Below, in pieces: positions 37,556-47,323 of a stretch of 47,741 nucleotides of DNA. The translations under genes and the position numbers were made by a program. The notes beneath the pieces are model-generated. The model did no database searches, was not told where the DNA came from, and saw only the letters and a list, made by a program, of their open reading frames with translations. How positions within the stretch are numbered: position 1 is the first letter of the stretch; every line of letters begins with the position of its first letter. The stretch is from Lachnospiraceae bacterium (lineage in GTDB: Bacteria; Bacillota; Clostridia; Lachnospirales; Lachnospiraceae), in NCBI GenBank assembly GCA_017450485.1, contig JAFSTN010000038.1:1-47741 (forward strand), given 5' to 3'.

Positions 37556-38653
37556 TCAGGACAGCATATTTTCAAGTTCATTCATGAAATGCACTTTAGC
37601 ACAGTCTATCAGCTTTCTGCTGATCCGCCTGAGCATGTCTGTCGTATCCGCATCCGTGTCTTTATAAGATGAAATGATCTGTTTTGAGTTCTCCATGAAC
37701 CTGTCCATGAACTCAGCCACCGTATCCGCTTCACATCCGGATATGATCTCATACAGAGAGTCCACGAACTTCTGTCTGCTCTCGGGCGGCAGACTTTCGA
37801 TCCAGTCATTGATGGCATCATCACGTATCCTGGCAGTCTCTTTCAGATCACTTTCAGGGACCAGTTCTCCGTTTTCCACACGCCACGTATAGAGATTATG
37901 CTGCAAAAGACCGATACCGATACTTTTGATCACAGTATAGTTGTCGTCCCTCTGCTGAAGCATGCCTATCAGACTGGATTGAGGCAGGTACTTGACTATA
38001 CGGTCACGGATGCGCTCATAACCGTCCATCTGCAGCATTCCCTTCATGAATCCCGGACCGTCCAGACAATATATCTCAGTCAGGCGATCCTGTATCTCCT
38101 CGGAAGCGTGCATGGCAGCGTAGATCGACAGATGACCTCCCTTGGAATGCCCGCCGATACGAAAACGTCCATCTATCATCGAAGCCGCATTGGTCAGATA
38201 TTCGATCGCCAGACGCTGTGCCGGTATCTGAGTCATGTATGTCAGATTGAAATCCTCTTTCCATCCGATCATAGAATCATCGGTCCCGCGGTAAGCCACA
38301 AAGGGATCGATCCCCGGCACCAGGAATGTTACCGCACTGAACTGTGTCTGTACTTCCCTGTCGAGGATATTTACATAGTGAGATATCTTCAGATCCGAAT
38401 AGCGTCTGCTCTTTAAGAGTCTGTCAAAGAGCCCCCTATTCAGTTTGCCGTATATACGCTCTCCGAAGATGCTCACACCATCCCCGCCAGCCTGTATATC
38501 ACGCAAATATATATCTTCGCCTTCACGGACCGCATCGTCATATTTCAGATAACTCAGCTGTGCAAGTACCAGACTGTCCGCATCACCAAATGGTCTGTCT
38601 TCAAAAGATGTGTCTCCGTATTCATCCAGATATTCAAGTATTGAAGCCGGCAT
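37556..38653 (-). CDS. DUF2974 (Mbeg1-like) alpha/beta hydrolase
   Basis: A 365-residue protein of the DUF2974 family, which has an alpha/beta-hydrolase fold with a lipase-like serine motif, here GGHSKGGHLSIYAA (Ser near residue 170). FVAYRGTDDSMIGWKEDFNL, a conserved block of the family, precedes it. The natural substrate of these proteins is unknown; a lipase or esterase role is likely. The start overlaps the end of the GTPase-nuclease gene by 20 bases, with GAGGAG inside that gene as its ribosome-binding site, so the two are co-translated. No signal peptide. Confidence 0.85.
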   Translation of the reverse strand: MPASILEYLDEYGDTSFEDRPFGDADSLVLAQLSYLKYDDAVREGEDIYLRDIQAGGDGVSIFGERIYGKLNRGLFDRLLKSRRYSDLKISHYVNILDREVQTQFSAVTFLVPGIDPFVAYRGTDDSMIGWKEDFNLTYMTQIPAQRLAIEYLTNAASMIDGRFRIGGHSKGGHLSIYAAMHASEEIQDRLTEIYCLDGPGFMKGMLQMDGYERIRDRIVKYLPQSSLIGMLQQRDDNYTVIKSIGIGLLQHNLYTWRVENGELVPESDLKETARIRDDAINDWIESLPPESRQKFVDSLYEIISGCEADTVAEFMDRFMENSKQIISSYKDTDADTTDMLRRISRKLIDCAKVHFMNELENMLS

Positions 38654-41342
38654 TTTCTCTGAATCTCCTCACATCTTCTTCAAGTTCGCGCGCTGACATA
38701 AGCTTTGCATTCTCACCCAGAATGATCAACTGGACCAGACTGTCGGATGTAGCTACGGTGATGTCCATGTCACCCGCATTTAAGACAGTGAAGCGTGCGA
38801 TGTACTGATCAGCAGTCTCCGCTTCCTTTGTATATACCACATGAACACCCAAATAGTCTATCTTTTCCGTGATATGGCCTTTGACCTTATATGCATCAAA
38901 CACGGCTATGATCTCGGTGTCCTTAAGTACTCTGTACTCTGACAGTATATCAAGAAGTCTGTACTTTGCGCCATCCATCTCATAGGTATCACCTGTGAGC
39001 AGGCATTTTAATTCATCCCAGGCATGAATGATGTTATAGCCGTCCACCAGAAGATACCTGGGGCGTTTCTTCGGCTCGCGTTTTGAGTACTTATCATCAC
39101 CGCCGGCCGCAGATTTTGATGAGATCACTCTCTTCTGATGATAGACACGTTTCGTTCTGCCGCGTCTCGAACCGGCATTGGCATGAGTCGTACGGTTCAG
39201 GATCTCATCTATCTCATCGGTTCCCATGGCATACAGCTTGTCCGACAGTTCACCCGATCTGCTGTGAGCTCTGGATACAGCGATCCTTTCAGCCATCTGT
39301 GCCTCACGTTCAAGCTTCTCATCTTCGGTCTCAGTCTCACCGTATATATACTCCGCTTCGCGTGACGGTACATGCATCATGCTTTCGCATTCATACCACG
39401 GAACATAGTATCCAGCCCCATGATCTATGAATACACTTCCGGAGAGGTTCAGGGGATCCGTATCGGGATCGTATGAGGTGCTCTCGATCACGCGGTCCGC
39501 ATCCTCTTCGCTGCACTCTTCATATCCGGAGAAAGTAAGTGTTATCCGCCCGTGTCCGGACGTATATTTTGTCAGTTCACTTTGATAATTATATATCTTC
39601 CCTGCAGGTGCCACTCCGGTGATCACACTCATCAACTCATCCTGGCTCTCTATCGATGATGAACCGTTCATCAGATTGATGTCATTCATCGCCTTTCCGA
39701 TATTGGCAGTTGGGAGAGTCATCGTATATGAGTAATACGGCTCCAGAAGCGTACACTCGGTCTTCATAAGTGCTTGTCTGACGGCACGTCTAGCTGCTTC
39801 CCTGAAGTCATTGCTCTCACTGTGCTTCGTATGCGATCTCCCGCCTATCAATGTGATCCTCATATCGGTCAGCTGAGAGCCGGTAAGCACACCTGCCGGC
39901 AGGTCTTTCGCCAGGGTGGCGAGTACTGTTTTCTGCCAGTTGATGTCCAGTTCGTTCACGGACAGGTCGGTGCCGATCTCTATACCGCTCCCCGCCGGCA
40001 GAGGTTCCAGCAGAAGCTGCACTTCGGCATAGTGTCTCAGAGGCTCGAAATGTCCGAATCCGATGACGGGATCAAGTATCGTCTCCTTATATATGATCCG
40101 GCCAGGACTGAATGTTACCCTGACACCATATCTTTCCTCAACAGTCTGAGCCAGTATCTCCAGCTGGAACTCACCCATTACGGATATCGATACGGAATTG
40201 CGGGATGAAGAGATTATGCTTCCGCTGTCGGGATGACTCCCCGACTCGTTATCAAGAGCGAGCAGCGGATCCTGCGAAGCCAGCTCTCTCAGCCTGGGTA
40301 TGAAGGTCCTCACAGGCACATCATCGGGCAGGATCATATCATAACACAGCACGGGTCTGTTAACGGGTTCCTTATCATCAGGCTCCGCGCCTATTCCCAT
40401 GCCGATAAAAGTTCTTTCCGGACCGCACAGAGTGACAACATCACCCGGTTCAGCCTTATCCACGGACTCATATCCGCCACCGCTGTAACGTCTGATCTGA
40501 GTCACTTTCTGACCTTCGAGGCGCGTATCCGGCAGACTGTCCCGGACAGATATACTGCCTCCGATGACCTTGACGAAACTTAGTTTATGACCGTCCTCAT
40601 ATGCGATCTTAAAGACTTTGGCGGCAGGCTCATCGCGATACCGGATATCCGGCATATGGTGCGTGATGAACCTGATAAGATCATCCGTACCTTCATTGTG
40701 AAGTGCCGACCCGAACACCGCCGGATGAAATCTGCCGGAGTATACAAGCGCCGTAACGTCATCATCCGTTACGGTACCTGTCTCGAGGTACTTTTCTATC
40801 AGATCGTCACTTAACGAAGCAATGTCTTCGATATGATCATCCGTGTAAGGCATTACACCCGGATCCAGCTCGTTCTTAAGAATGCGTAACAGATCCGATC
40901 GTCGCTCGCGTTCACACATATCGGTCTTATTGACATACACCACATATGGTACACGACGATCCGCGAGCATCCGTTTAAGACGCTTTACCGAATCGGTCAC
41001 TCCGTCAGGCGCGCTTATGAGAAGTATCGCCAGATCCATGACAGACAGACTTCTCTCAGTCTCACCTATGAAGTCGGCATGTCCCGGAGTGTCTATCAGC
41101 GTGATCCTGACGTCATCCCCGGACATATTGAGATCGTGAGCAATCGGCAGATCGATCACGGCCTGCTTGGAATATATGGTCACTCCGCGCTTTTTCTCCA
41201 GAGTCTCCGTATCCAGATAAGCATCGCCTGCATCCACTCTGCCCTGTGATCTGATCATTCCGGTCAGATACAGCATGCTTTCGGTCAGAGTAGTCTTGCC
41301 TGCGTCTACATGTGCGATTATTCCTATACTGAGTTTCTTCAT
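38634..41342 (-). CDS. TetM-like ribosomal GTPase fused to a YacP/Rae1-type NYN endoribonuclease
   Basis: Residues 1 to about 650 are an EF-G-like translational GTPase of the TetM/TetO class: G1 AHVDAGKTTL, G2 RGVTI, G3 DTPGHADF, G4 NKTD and G5 GSA. Domains II-V follow, with the domain IV region LLEPYYSYTMTLP. After a basic linker, residues 760-902 are a complete NYN domain like B. subtilis YacP/Rae1, the A-site mRNA endonuclease: LLVDGYNIIHAW, VFDAYKVKG, YTKEAETADQYIAR, ATSDS and SARELEEDV, with acidic catalytic residues kept. One chain thus joins a factor that enters the ribosomal A-site region with a nuclease that cuts mRNA there. I start at MKKLSIGII (41342); the ATG at 41384 is inside a hairpin. 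Neither has a good ribosome-binding site. Tetracycline resistance cannot be assumed. Confidence 0.9.
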   Translation of the reverse strand: MKKLSIGIIAHVDAGKTTLTESMLYLTGMIRSQGRVDAGDAYLDTETLEKKRGVTIYSKQAVIDLPIAHDLNMSGDDVRITLIDTPGHADFIGETERSLSVMDLAILLISAPDGVTDSVKRLKRMLADRRVPYVVYVNKTDMCERERRSDLLRILKNELDPGVMPYTDDHIEDIASLSDDLIEKYLETGTVTDDDVTALVYSGRFHPAVFGSALHNEGTDDLIRFITHHMPDIRYRDEPAAKVFKIAYEDGHKLSFVKVIGGSISVRDSLPDTRLEGQKVTQIRRYSGGGYESVDKAEPGDVVTLCGPERTFIGMGIGAEPDDKEPVNRPVLCYDMILPDDVPVRTFIPRLRELASQDPLLALDNESGSHPDSGSIISSSRNSVSISVMGEFQLEILAQTVEERYGVRVTFSPGRIIYKETILDPVIGFGHFEPLRHYAEVQLLLEPLPAGSGIEIGTDLSVNELDINWQKTVLATLAKDLPAGVLTGSQLTDMRITLIGGRSHTKHSESNDFREAARRAVRQALMKTECTLLEPYYSYTMTLPTANIGKAMNDINLMNGSSSIESQDELMSVITGVAPAGKIYNYQSELTKYTSGHGRITLTFSGYEECSEEDADRVIESTSYDPDTDPLNLSGSVFIDHGAGYYVPWYECESMMHVPSREAEYIYGETETEDEKLEREAQMAERIAVSRAHSRSGELSDKLYAMGTDEIDEILNRTTHANAGSRRGRTKRVYHQKRVISSKSAAGGDDKYSKREPKKRPRYLLVDGYNIIHAWDELKCLLTGDTYEMDGAKYRLLDILSEYRVLKDTEIIAVFDAYKVKGHITEKIDYLGVHVVYTKEAETADQYIARFTVLNAGDMDITVATSDSLVQLIILGENAKLMSARELEEDVRRFRENAGFNT

Positions 41343-41370: not shown

Positions 41371-41401
41371 ATCGCCGCATCCATGTAATGAATGCGGCGA
41401 T
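41371..41401 (-). other. Stem-loop between the GGGtGRT and GTPase-nuclease genes
   Basis: A 13-bp stem with one mismatch (41371-41383 with 41389-41401) and a 5-nt loop. On the minus strand it is followed by TGTGTCC rather than a T-run, so it is a poor terminator. It may control expression of the GTPase-nuclease gene, whose start is 29 bases further on. Confidence 0.6.
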
Positions 41402-45413: not shown

Positions 45414-46439
45414 TCATTCATACGCATTGGTATATTCATCCGTCATGTGCCAGAGCATCGACGTGTCGTAATCTGCCGGCAGATGCACCCAGTTACCGTT
45501 GTCTGTTTCGATATACCATGCATCCTCGCTCATATCATATTCCATCCAGCCATAGTCCCCGTAGTCGGAGGAGATCCCTTCATACCAGTACTGCCACTGA
45601 TAAGGTGATACGGAATCGTTATAATAAAACCAGCATTCGGTCTCACTGTCATACCAGTCTTCACCATCCAGATAACAGGTCCTGCCTATCTCATCCACAT
45701 ATATGGAATTCCTGGCAGATTCCGTTTCGTATCTCGAACTGCCCGAGCTGTGGTTTGAAATACCGGCGGCGATCAAACCGACAAAGATTATCAGAAACGG
45801 CAGCGCAATGCTGCATACAAACAAGCCTATAGCGATCTTACCCATGAGCGGAAGACGGGGAATGACCGACTTTATGCTGCCGTCATCCTGTGAAGCATTG
45901 CCACTGTACGATTCTTTCGCTTTATCTGTTATATCTATCTGAAGCGGGGCACCGCACTTGTCACAGACGGGCACGTCTCCTTCTTTCCACTTATACACCA
46001 TGTGGTTTCCGCAGTACTCACACTTAAGCATCGTTTCCGCCCCGGACATGATCATATTATCATAATGCCGGCCGTTTTCATCATAGTATCCCTCTTCAAA
46101 ATACTGTCCGTCCGATGCTGTCCATCCCTGCGGATAATAGTCATAATCATGTGCAGCACCATAGAAATGACCGATGGTGCCATGTGATACATTATTCCAG
46201 TCGTAGGGCTGCGATTTCCGCGTACGGTGGACAGGTGTACTGCTTCTGTAACTGCTTCGTGCAGGTGAAGCATATGAGCTGTGATGACTCGACGAATGAC
46301 TCGAGTGACTTCTGCCCGAATGACTGCGGCTGCTCGAATAGCTTCGACTGCTCGAATGACTGCTGCTGTGATGTGAACTGCTGTGTGAGCTGTGATGACT
46401 GCTGCTGTGATGTGAACTGCTGTGTCCGCTGGGTGGCAT
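45414..46439 (-). CDS. Ser/His-rich zinc-ribbon membrane protein, unknown function
   Basis: From ATG 46439 (AAGGAGAAATAGAA upstream) the product has 341 residues in four parts. Residues 1-70 are almost only Ser and His with some Arg/Tyr (about 14 His within 55 residues). A zinc ribbon follows, CEYCGNHM and CDKCGAPLQ. One membrane helix spans about residues 197-222 (GKIAIGLFVCSIALPFLIIF). The C-terminal 110 residues are acidic and aromatic, rich in Trp and Tyr, with repeated D-E-D-W-Y patterns. By charge, the zinc ribbon is probably cytoplasmic and the acidic tail outside. A metal-sensing or metal-buffering role is possible but unproven. I do not recognise the family. Confidence 0.75.
   Translation of the reverse strand: MPPSGHSSSHHSSSHHSSHSSSHHSSSHSSSRSYSSSRSHSGRSHSSHSSSHHSSYASPARSSYRSSTPVHRTRKSQPYDWNNVSHGTIGHFYGAAHDYDYYPQGWTASDGQYFEEGYYDENGRHYDNMIMSGAETMLKCEYCGNHMVYKWKEGDVPVCDKCGAPLQIDITDKAKESYSGNASQDDGSIKSVIPRLPLMGKIAIGLFVCSIALPFLIIFVGLIAAGISNHSSGSSRYETESARNSIYVDEIGRTCYLDGEDWYDSETECWFYYNDSVSPYQWQYWYEGISSDYGDYGWMEYDMSEDAWYIETDNGNWVHLPADYDTSMLWHMTDEYTNAYE
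46357..46425. repeat. Tandem 30-bp direct repeat in the Ser/His-rich coding region
   Basis: The 30 bases at 46357-46386 recur exactly at 46396-46425 (period 39 bp, 13 codons). It keeps the reading frame, so changes in copy number would lengthen or shorten the Ser/His segment. Confidence 0.85.
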
Positions 46440-46570
46440 TTCTATTTCTCCTTCGATCAATGTCTGCTTATCCGGAACGCCCGACAAGCAAATATTTGCT
46501 GTTTATGACCCATTGACAAGGTTTTATCAACTTTTACGGCCGATTAGGTCATATTTCGGATACTACGATT

Positions 46571-47323
46571 CTACCGCAAAAAACAAACACTATCGACTGT
46601 TGCTTCGGATTCCAAGGGCAGAGCAGTAATTTCTTTTCCCTTTACCGGCATAGGAAAATTGAATACGATATTCCTGATCCAGCAGCCGTTTTCTGGCTTT
46701 TCGTGGTATATATCAATACGCTCGATAAACGATCTCATGAAGTCTCTCTGCTCTACCTCAGTGAATGTATTATACAGCTTATCGAATGCAAGCAGAAGCT
46801 GATATACATTATCGGCGGATATCTTTTCCTGCCGTACACTCAGAAGACGGTTGTTCCATTCATCCATCTGTGATTCTATATTTTCTGCCTTATCATACTG
46901 TTCGTCATATCTGCGCTGGAGATCGGATATCTTCTTGTTATAGTGGGTGTCCGTCACATCAAGATTGTCCATCTGATGCTCCAGACGAGTCTTTGTCCCC
47001 TGTACCTGCTTTAACTGAGTGCGGAGTGCTTCAATACGCTCTTCCATCTCCGATGTATCTACTGCGGTGCCAATCTTGGTCTTAATCGCACCTTTAAATC
47101 GATCATCTTTGACCATTGCTGATATGATCGCAGCAACCATGCGGTTCATCTCTGTCTGCTCGATATTGAGTCTGAACAAGCATTTATGACCGGTCGCTCC
47201 GAGAGTATTCTTGCAGTAATAGTAGTATCTCGTGTATTTATCCTTACTGTGTGCCTTGGCTATACCCATCCACCTGTATCGCTGTGGATACACGAGTGTA
47301 GATGTAGCATTTCTTTTTTTCAC
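46571..47323 (-). pseudogene. Large serine recombinase, internally deleted
   Basis: The visible C-terminal part is that of a large serine recombinase: a zinc-ribbon remnant (YYYYCKNTLGATGHKC), a long coiled coil (about residues 90-170) and the end TFTEVEQRDFMRSFIERIDIY. The N-terminal catalytic domain is missing. In another frame, 47244-47309 encodes CYIYTRVSTAIQVDGYS, the hallmark N-terminus with the catalytic Ser, after a GTG start with AGGAGG. A run of seven A (47314-47320) would need an eighth to connect start and stub. So the gene kept both ends, lost about 200 or more codons between them and shifted frame in the A-run. The 250-codon frame now open begins with a nonsense N-terminus. Confidence 0.8.

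What the first reader, a model, noticed from the sequence alone, without database searches (positions are those of the whole stretch)
38634..41342. Single-chain TetM-like GTPase plus Rae1/YacP-type ribosomal mRNA endonuclease
All five GTPase motifs of a ribosomal-protection-type factor and all recognisable NYN/YacP blocks sit in one 902-residue protein, joined by a basic linker. Rae1 is known to bind the ribosome and cut mRNA in the A site; TetM-like factors bind the same site. The fusion suggests a factor that senses a stalled or drug-blocked A site and cuts its message, i.e. a ribosome-rescue or antibiotic-response system. Co-translation with a DUF2974 hydrolase adds an unexplored partner. 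I cannot verify how widely the fusion has been described.
Basis: partly seen in the sequence, partly recalled or inferred. Interest (0 to 1): 0.8.

Follow-up and report, generated by a model that had tools for sequence, protein, structure and literature searches.

The report
EF-G-like GTPase fused to Rae1 nuclease
Many gut Clostridia carry one protein that joins a ribosome-binding type of GTPase to an enzyme thought to cut messenger RNA inside stalled ribosomes; it is probably a house-keeping quality-control factor rather than the tetracycline-resistance protein its database name suggests.

Summary
Confirmed, on the minus strand: one 902-aa protein holds a complete EF-G/TetM-fold GTPase and an intact-looking Rae1/YacP-type NYN nuclease, joined by a disordered linker. 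The architecture is not new: Atkinson 2015 noted it for ten Clostridiales species. Added here: (1) It is the usual form of Rae1 in this family: 99 of 120 sampled genomes fused by frame length, 7 free; fused and free rarely coexist. (2) The GTPase is not TetM: it forms its own clade beside an unfused sister group, scores half the curated Tet cut-off, and has another domain IV tip (HxKHTEGGDF, not YSPVSTPADF). (3) The nuclease keeps the catalytic residues in 136 of 136 fusions, while two arginines invariant in 40 of 40 free Rae1 proteins, and in part the C-terminal tail, are relaxed or lost, as expected if the GTPase now docks it. (4) DUF2974 is not a conserved partner. Best reading: a GTPase-tethered A-site mRNA nuclease that cuts the message of stalled ribosomes for tmRNA rescue. 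The mechanism is inferred, not tested.

The parts
38634..41342 (-). Fused GTPase-NYN gene, 902 aa (start ATG 41342, stop 38634-38636)
   Evidence: model mean pLDDT 83.4
40650..41342 (-). G domain, residues 1-231, with G1-G5 motifs
   Evidence: Pfam GTP_EFTU 4-231
40410..40622 (-). EF-G-like domain 2, residues 241-311 (Pfam match under its cut-off)
   Evidence: fold
39759..40103 (-). Domain IV, residues 414-528
   Evidence: Pfam EFG_IV
39804..39842 (-). Domain IV tip loop GRSHTKHSESNDF (residues 501-513); clade signature GRxHxKHTEGGDF
39492..39749 (-). Domain V, residues 532-617
   Evidence: Pfam EFG_C
39372..39491 (-). Clade-specific extension after domain V, residues 618-657 (consensus GSVFCxHGAGFxVPW...MH)
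39060..39371 (-). Linker, residues 658-761; 690-756 predicted disordered
38646..39059 (-). NYN/YacP (Rae1-type) nuclease domain, residues 762-899, without most of the C-terminal tail of free Rae1
39042..39044 (-). Predicted catalytic Asp767 (= Rae1 D7)
38895..38897 (-). Conserved Asp816 (= Rae1 D53)
38808..38810 (-). Predicted catalytic Asp845 (= Rae1 D81)
38742..38744 (-). Predicted catalytic Asp867 (= Rae1 D104)
37556..38653 (-). DUF2974/Mbeg1-like gene, overlaps the end of the fused gene by 20 nt; not a conserved neighbour
41371..41401 (-). 14-bp RNA hairpin in the gap between the upstream gene and the fused gene (role unknown)
   Evidence: z -3.07

Best explanation
It is most likely a house-keeping ribosome factor of Clostridia: a Rae1-type endoribonuclease tethered to its own class of EF-G/TetM-fold GTPase. 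Likely action: the GTP-bound GTPase lands on the factor site of a ribosome whose A site stays empty or blocked and puts domain IV, with its HxKHTEGGDF tip, into the A site (inferred from the fold and from TetM and EF-G). GTP hydrolysis lets domain IV leave, and the NYN domain, held by a flexible linker, enters the vacated A site and cuts the mRNA there, as described for free Rae1 (inferred). The cut leaves a non-stop complex for tmRNA-SmpB, which this genome has. The GTPase would take over part of what docks free Rae1 on the ribosome. Shown here: one chain, intact motifs, one clade of fused GTPases, near mutual exclusion with free Rae1, relaxed Rae1 arginines and tail. Inferred: ribosome binding, order of events, A-site cutting, rescue.
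For: Domains and fold. Catalytic residues in 136 of 136 fusions and 40 of 40 free Rae1; 74 of the 136 had been found with patterns that contain some of these residues, the other 62, not so chosen, also keep them 62 of 62. Fused and free are alternatives: own family 99 fused by frame length, 7 free of 120 genomes; order 51 fused, 2 of them with a free copy too, 80 free only, of 147 (Fisher 1.9e-22, shared ancestry not removed). Own genome: one NYN_YacP, the fusion. GTPase tree: 76 fusions plus one frame-split copy form one clade, 99 support, beside an unfused group; one origin of the NYN part not rejected, p-AU 0.92. R118 and R165 (Rae1 numbering) in 40 of 40 free; in 38 and 19 of 136 fused, in 33 and 14 of the 62 not chosen by pattern. 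Tail under 35 aa in 42 of 136 fusions (16 of the 62), 0 of 40 free, 9 changes on the tree. R166P is a Rae1 allele among class II suppressors, which the authors conclude disrupt YacO or Rae1 activity (PMC6613710, passages). Rae1 is described as attacking mRNA in the A site in PMC12320835 and PMC6613710 (passages). tmRNA and SmpB present.
Against: No activity was measured. Domain IV and the NYN domain cannot both fill the A site, so the two-step order is a guess. Unfused GTPases occur without any NYN_YacP match in 5 of 15 class genomes, and their association with free Rae1 is not significant (p 0.09), so the GTPase has a function of its own. About half of the fusions not chosen by pattern keep R118 (33 of 62), and many keep a full tail, so the loss of Rae1 docking features is partial. 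12 of 120 family genomes show neither part, so it is dispensable or was missed in incomplete genomes.
Confidence: 0.5

Rival explanations
1. It is a tetracycline (or other A-site drug) ribosomal protection protein with an added RNase, as NCBI's product name for the Agathobacter copy says and as Atkinson 2015 suggested.
For: Fold and 28-31% identity to TetM; TetM is the first PDB sequence hit; best NCBIfam hit is tet_protect; the Agathobacter rectalis copy is named TetM/TetW/TetO/TetS family and lies on a 252-kb plasmid; Atkinson's sentences.
Against: 377 bits against a curated cut-off of 775; outside the TetM/O/S clade, 99 support; tip loop GRxHxKHTEGGDF and loop GHFEPLRHYAEV instead of YYSPVSTPADF and NPFWAS; in 99 of 120 family genomes like a core gene; no neighbour family shared by most fusions (neighbours were clustered, not annotated).
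Confidence: 0.14
2. The NYN part cuts rRNA or tRNA, not mRNA: a GTPase-guided ribosome maturation or inactivation factor.
For: Atkinson 2015 cites a proposed role of this domain in rRNA and tRNA maturation and raises rRNA RNase activity. The loss of Rae1's tail and arginines could mark a new substrate.
Against: The nearest relative by sequence and fold is Rae1, and the two forms replace each other among genomes; of the columns at least 85% conserved in free Rae1, only R118, E107, A116, E123 and the tail residues are relaxed.
Confidence: 0.17
3. The two halves work separately, for instance a backup translocase or rescue GTPase and an ordinary Rae1, joined only for shared expression.
For: Free GTPase and free Rae1 occur as separate genes, far apart or on different contigs, in 10 of 236 class genomes; the long disordered linker allows independence.
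Against: The fused GTPases form one clade that includes Desulfosporosinus, Anaerovorax and Clostridium, and the fusion is kept in most genomes of the family; the tail of the nuclease is short only in fusions.
Confidence: 0.14
4. Artefact: assembly error, or two proteins made from this locus.
For: A few relatives are split by a frame change or stop (G033, G443).
Against: 137 fused frames among the fetched loci, some in single-contig genomes such as G140 and G026; no stop or frame change in the window.
Confidence: 0.01

Closest known systems
Rae1/YacP of Bacillus subtilis (ribosome-associated endoribonuclease, PDB 5mq8)
   Same: NYN_YacP domain, same invariant Asp/Asn set, same fold, as a rule one per genome
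   Different: Free Rae1 is mostly 170-200 aa, with a C-terminal tail and invariant R118 and R165; its neighbours differ from those of the fusions. Here it is the C-terminal domain of a GTPase and most of the tail is missing
TetM/TetO/TetS ribosomal protection proteins (PDB 3j9y)
   Same: EF-G-like GTPase fold, about 30% identity
   Different: Different clade, different domain IV tip and loop, extra extension after domain V, NYN domain; curated Tet cut-off missed
Tet proteins of ten Clostridiales species with a YacP-like NYN RNase domain (Atkinson 2015, PMC4342817)
   Same: Same architecture, same class of bacteria; the window protein is very probably of this kind
   Different: There classed as Tet and read as a possible resistance mechanism; here a separate clade that stands in for free Rae1. 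The paper's sequence list was not available to me
EF-G
   Same: Fold, GTPase motifs, a histidine in the domain IV tip
   Different: About 25% identity; the genome has two other genes with EF-G domain IV; EF-G cut-off missed

Membership tests
Rae1/YacP (NYN_YacP, PF05991) | Profile match over the curated cut-off | tested here: met
   132.9 bits against 24.6
Rae1/YacP (NYN_YacP, PF05991) | Acidic active site (Rae1 D7, D53, D81, D104) and N10 | tested here: met
   All present; 136 of 136 fusions and 40 of 40 free
Rae1/YacP (NYN_YacP, PF05991) | PIN-like fold nearest to Rae1 | tested here: met
   First three hits are 5mq8/5mq9
Rae1/YacP (NYN_YacP, PF05991) | Stand-alone protein with C-terminal tail, R118 and R165 | tested here: not met
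   Fused; tail 19 aa, L881 at R118, no R165
Rae1/YacP (NYN_YacP, PF05991) | Translation-dependent mRNA cleavage in the A site | not testable with these tools
   Needs biochemistry
TetM-type ribosomal protection protein | EF-G-like multi-domain GTPase fold | tested here: met
TetM-type ribosomal protection protein | NCBIfam equivalog cut-off (NF012153, 775 bits) | tested here: not met
   377.3 bits
TetM-type ribosomal protection protein | Groups with TetM/TetO/TetS in a tree | tested here: not met
   Separate clade, 99 support, quick tree
TetM-type ribosomal protection protein | Domain IV tip YSPVSTPADF as in TetM, TetO and TetS | tested here: not met
   SHTKHSESNDF here; HxKHT..DF in 72 of 76 fusions and 16 of 19 rows fetched as free
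TetM-type ribosomal protection protein | Confers tetracycline resistance | not testable with these tools
   Needs an MIC test
Elongation factor G | NCBIfam TIGR00484 cut-off (659 bits) | tested here: not met
   210.2 bits
Clostridial Tet-NYN fusion of Atkinson 2015 | EF-G/Tet-type GTPase plus YacP-like NYN in one chain, in Clostridia | tested here: met
   named relatives are Lachnospiraceae and other Clostridia
Clostridial Tet-NYN fusion of Atkinson 2015 | Same orthologous group as the ten species' sequences | not tested
   Supplement not available

The most novel reading that the evidence does not exclude
A bacterial translational GTPase that delivers an mRNA nuclease: GTP hydrolysis acts as a timer that lets normal elongation win and releases the tethered NYN cutter only into A sites that stay unfilled. 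It would be the default no-go mRNA surveillance enzyme of Lachnospiraceae, and the unfused sister GTPases would be its ancestral partner or a separate A-site probing factor still without a known function.
Probability: 0.3. Interest if true: 0.85.

Novelty: new variant of a known kind. Interest (0 to 1): 0.56.

Why it matters
If right, a large group of gut bacteria cuts mRNA in stalled ribosomes with a GTPase-gated enzyme that B. subtilis does not have, and a resistance name (TetM/TetW/TetO/TetS family, seen on one record) is attached to a house-keeping translation factor, which could inflate resistome counts. It also makes an open question testable, how Rae1 chooses stalled ribosomes, because nature has swapped part of its docking surface.

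Tried and rejected
DUF2974 as partner: no relative of P0002 in ORFs of 60 loci or of the wider set made from L002, L003, L045-L104, L119-L134, L165-L308; some of these loci are cut by contig ends. Shared operon: among the 25 largest neighbour families none is near most fusions; one that reads like UvrA (name recalled, not searched) is near 21 of 137. Phage-defence profiles: none. Co-occurrence of free GTPase with free Rae1: looked strong in hand-picked genomes, not significant in the class sample (10 of 15, p 0.09); dropped as evidence. Two origins of the fusion: suggested by the free NYN tree, not supported by the AU test (three long rows left out). Promoter and terminator scan: no more than shuffles. 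Tetracycline susceptibility of Lachnospiraceae in print: listing only, nothing used. NYN hits in phage records: 12, not followed.

Known slants: the 80 named loci were found with patterns that hold part of the active site and ranked by likeness to the window's domain, so I give the 62 other fusions apart. Rows left out before counts: frames touching a locus end, matches starting after query residue 10, the split copy L092 and the four named loci without a fused frame. Fused or free was read from frame length and then recounted by script; fetched loci bore it out in 59 of 59 regions taken as fused. On rechecking I lowered the main odds from 0.52 to 0.50, because R118 is kept in 33 of those 62, and raised two rivals by 0.01 each.
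Full report

Distribution. Of 120 genomes drawn from the window's family, 108 have NYN_YacP: 99 in fusion-length frames (96 of at least 780 aa, 3 of 516-690), 7 free, 1 split by a frame change (G033), 1 cut by a contig end (G078); 12 have none. G030 has, besides a fusion, a second piece at a contig end that could be either. Of 147 genomes of the order (which include 19 of the family), 132 have it: 51 fusion-length, of which 2 (G225, G241) also have a free copy, 80 free only, 1 unclear (G212). The own genome has the fusion only and two further genes with EF-G domain IV. Of 236 genomes of the class, a profile of domains IV-V plus extension finds 101 at E 1e-28: 85 fused, seven of them cut or broken, 15 unfused, 1 fragment; of the 15 unfused, 10 have a separate NYN_YacP and 5 none. 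In the class three genomes of one genus have two NYN matches. In a phylum sample 19 of 249 have the GTPase. Named carriers include many Lachnospiraceae, Hungatella, Anaerostipes, Desulfosporosinus acididurans, Anaerovorax odorimutans and Clostridium punense. Of the 80 named loci kept, 76 hold a fused frame, but they were ranked by likeness to the fused NYN domain.

The GTPase is not TetM. In a quick tree of 104 rows, the 76 fusions and one frame-split copy form one clade (99); an unfused clade of 15 rows (96) and one more unfused row lie next to it, unresolved among the three; TetM, TetO and TetS lie outside a branch of 99. The groups differ in the parts that reach the decoding site: tip loop GRxHxKHTEGGDF here, GLYYSPVSTPADF in TetM, GSYHxVDSSEMAF in EF-G; the loop near residue 430 is GHFEPLRHYAEV here, NPFWAS in TetM, QSGGRGQYGH in EF-G. 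HxKHT..DF is present in 72 of 76 fusions and 16 of 19 rows fetched as free (the other 3 lie outside the new clade or at its base), in none of 3 Tet and 5 EF-G rows. That the tip loops of Tet interact with and dislodge tetracycline is from Atkinson 2015 (passages). The NCBIfam Tet score is 377 against a cut-off of 775. NCBI nevertheless names the Agathobacter rectalis copy a tetracycline-resistance protein.

The nuclease has let go of part of Rae1. Free Rae1 proteins keep 48 or more residues after Ser120 (40 of 40); 42 of 136 fusions have under 35 (16 of the 62 not found by pattern), the window 19, with 9 changes on the GTPase tree among 76 fusions. R118 and R165 are in 40 of 40 free proteins, but in 38 and 19 of 136 fusions (67 have a gap at R165), and in 33 and 14 of the 62; the tail alignment of fusions is uncertain. 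Other relaxed columns are E107, A116, E123 and E164; the catalytic ones are not relaxed. The next residue, R166, was changed in one of the rae1 suppressor alleles that the authors read as disrupting Rae1 (PMC6613710, passages), and a W164L form was crystallised (title). I infer that this tail helps free Rae1 on the ribosome and is less needed when a GTPase docks it; that role was not tested here or read in print.

Mechanism. [quoted passage not shown] The GTPase fold would place domain IV in the same site (recalled from EF-G and TetM). Both cannot be there at once, so I propose a sequence: the GTPase probes and leaves, the tethered NYN enters and cuts, tmRNA-SmpB (present) rescues. This is inference.

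Surroundings. The upstream gene is GGGtGRT (PF14057), the downstream one DUF2974/Mbeg1-like; the latter does not recur. Of 45 loci with an unfused NYN frame, 33, 31 and 24 share neighbours that I read as rlmB, mrnC and cysS (families; names recalled). A 14-bp hairpin lies in the 88-nt gap before the fused gene. A frame at 46571-47323 near the window's end looks to me like the end of a site-specific recombinase (recalled likeness; no Pfam match), and the Agathobacter copy lies on a plasmid next to a BrnT/CopG toxin-antitoxin pair, so mobility is not excluded for single copies.

Prior print. Atkinson 2015 (PMC4342817; passages read) reports Tet proteins of ten Clostridiales species with a YacP-like NYN domain and suggests an RNase-based resistance mechanism. 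The listings (20 of 40 shown; 15 of 75 shown) showed no other title on the fusion; the library holds only openly licensed papers. Leroy 2017, Condon 2018 and Deves 2023 were seen only in reference lists, so an earlier mention there is possible.

Noticed in passing
L165-L172, L176-L183 (free GTPase loci): Unfused EF-G/TetM-fold GTPases, mostly about 650-730 aa, with the tip HxKHT[ES]GGDF and a C-terminal extension, no known function; one genome (G363) has two copies.
   Followed up: partly
L184 4263-6983 (G443): Fused gene interrupted by an in-frame stop codon between the G domain and the rest; left as it is.
   Followed up: no
L173, L174, L175: More divergent TetM-related GTPases (tips such as HLEHTHGGDF) that lie between the new clade, TetM and EF-G in the tree.
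   Followed up: no
L305 5531-8775 (Agathobacter rectalis NZ_CP143948.1): The fused gene lies on a 252-kb plasmid there, next to a BrnT/CopG toxin-antitoxin pair, and is named a tetracycline-resistance protein by NCBI.
   Followed up: partly
window 41371-41401: 14-bp hairpin in the 88-nt gap upstream of the fused gene, no clear T run; the alternative ATG at 41384 lies in it.
   Followed up: partly
MT835514.1, MT835563.1 (phage collection): Records labelled as phage carry a NYN_YacP domain about 50% identical to the window's; may be host DNA.
   Followed up: no
window 46571-47323: Frame that looks like the C-terminal part of a site-specific recombinase; no Pfam match.
   Followed up: no
window 45414-46487: Protein that begins with a long run of Ser and His repeats; no Pfam match.
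   Followed up: no
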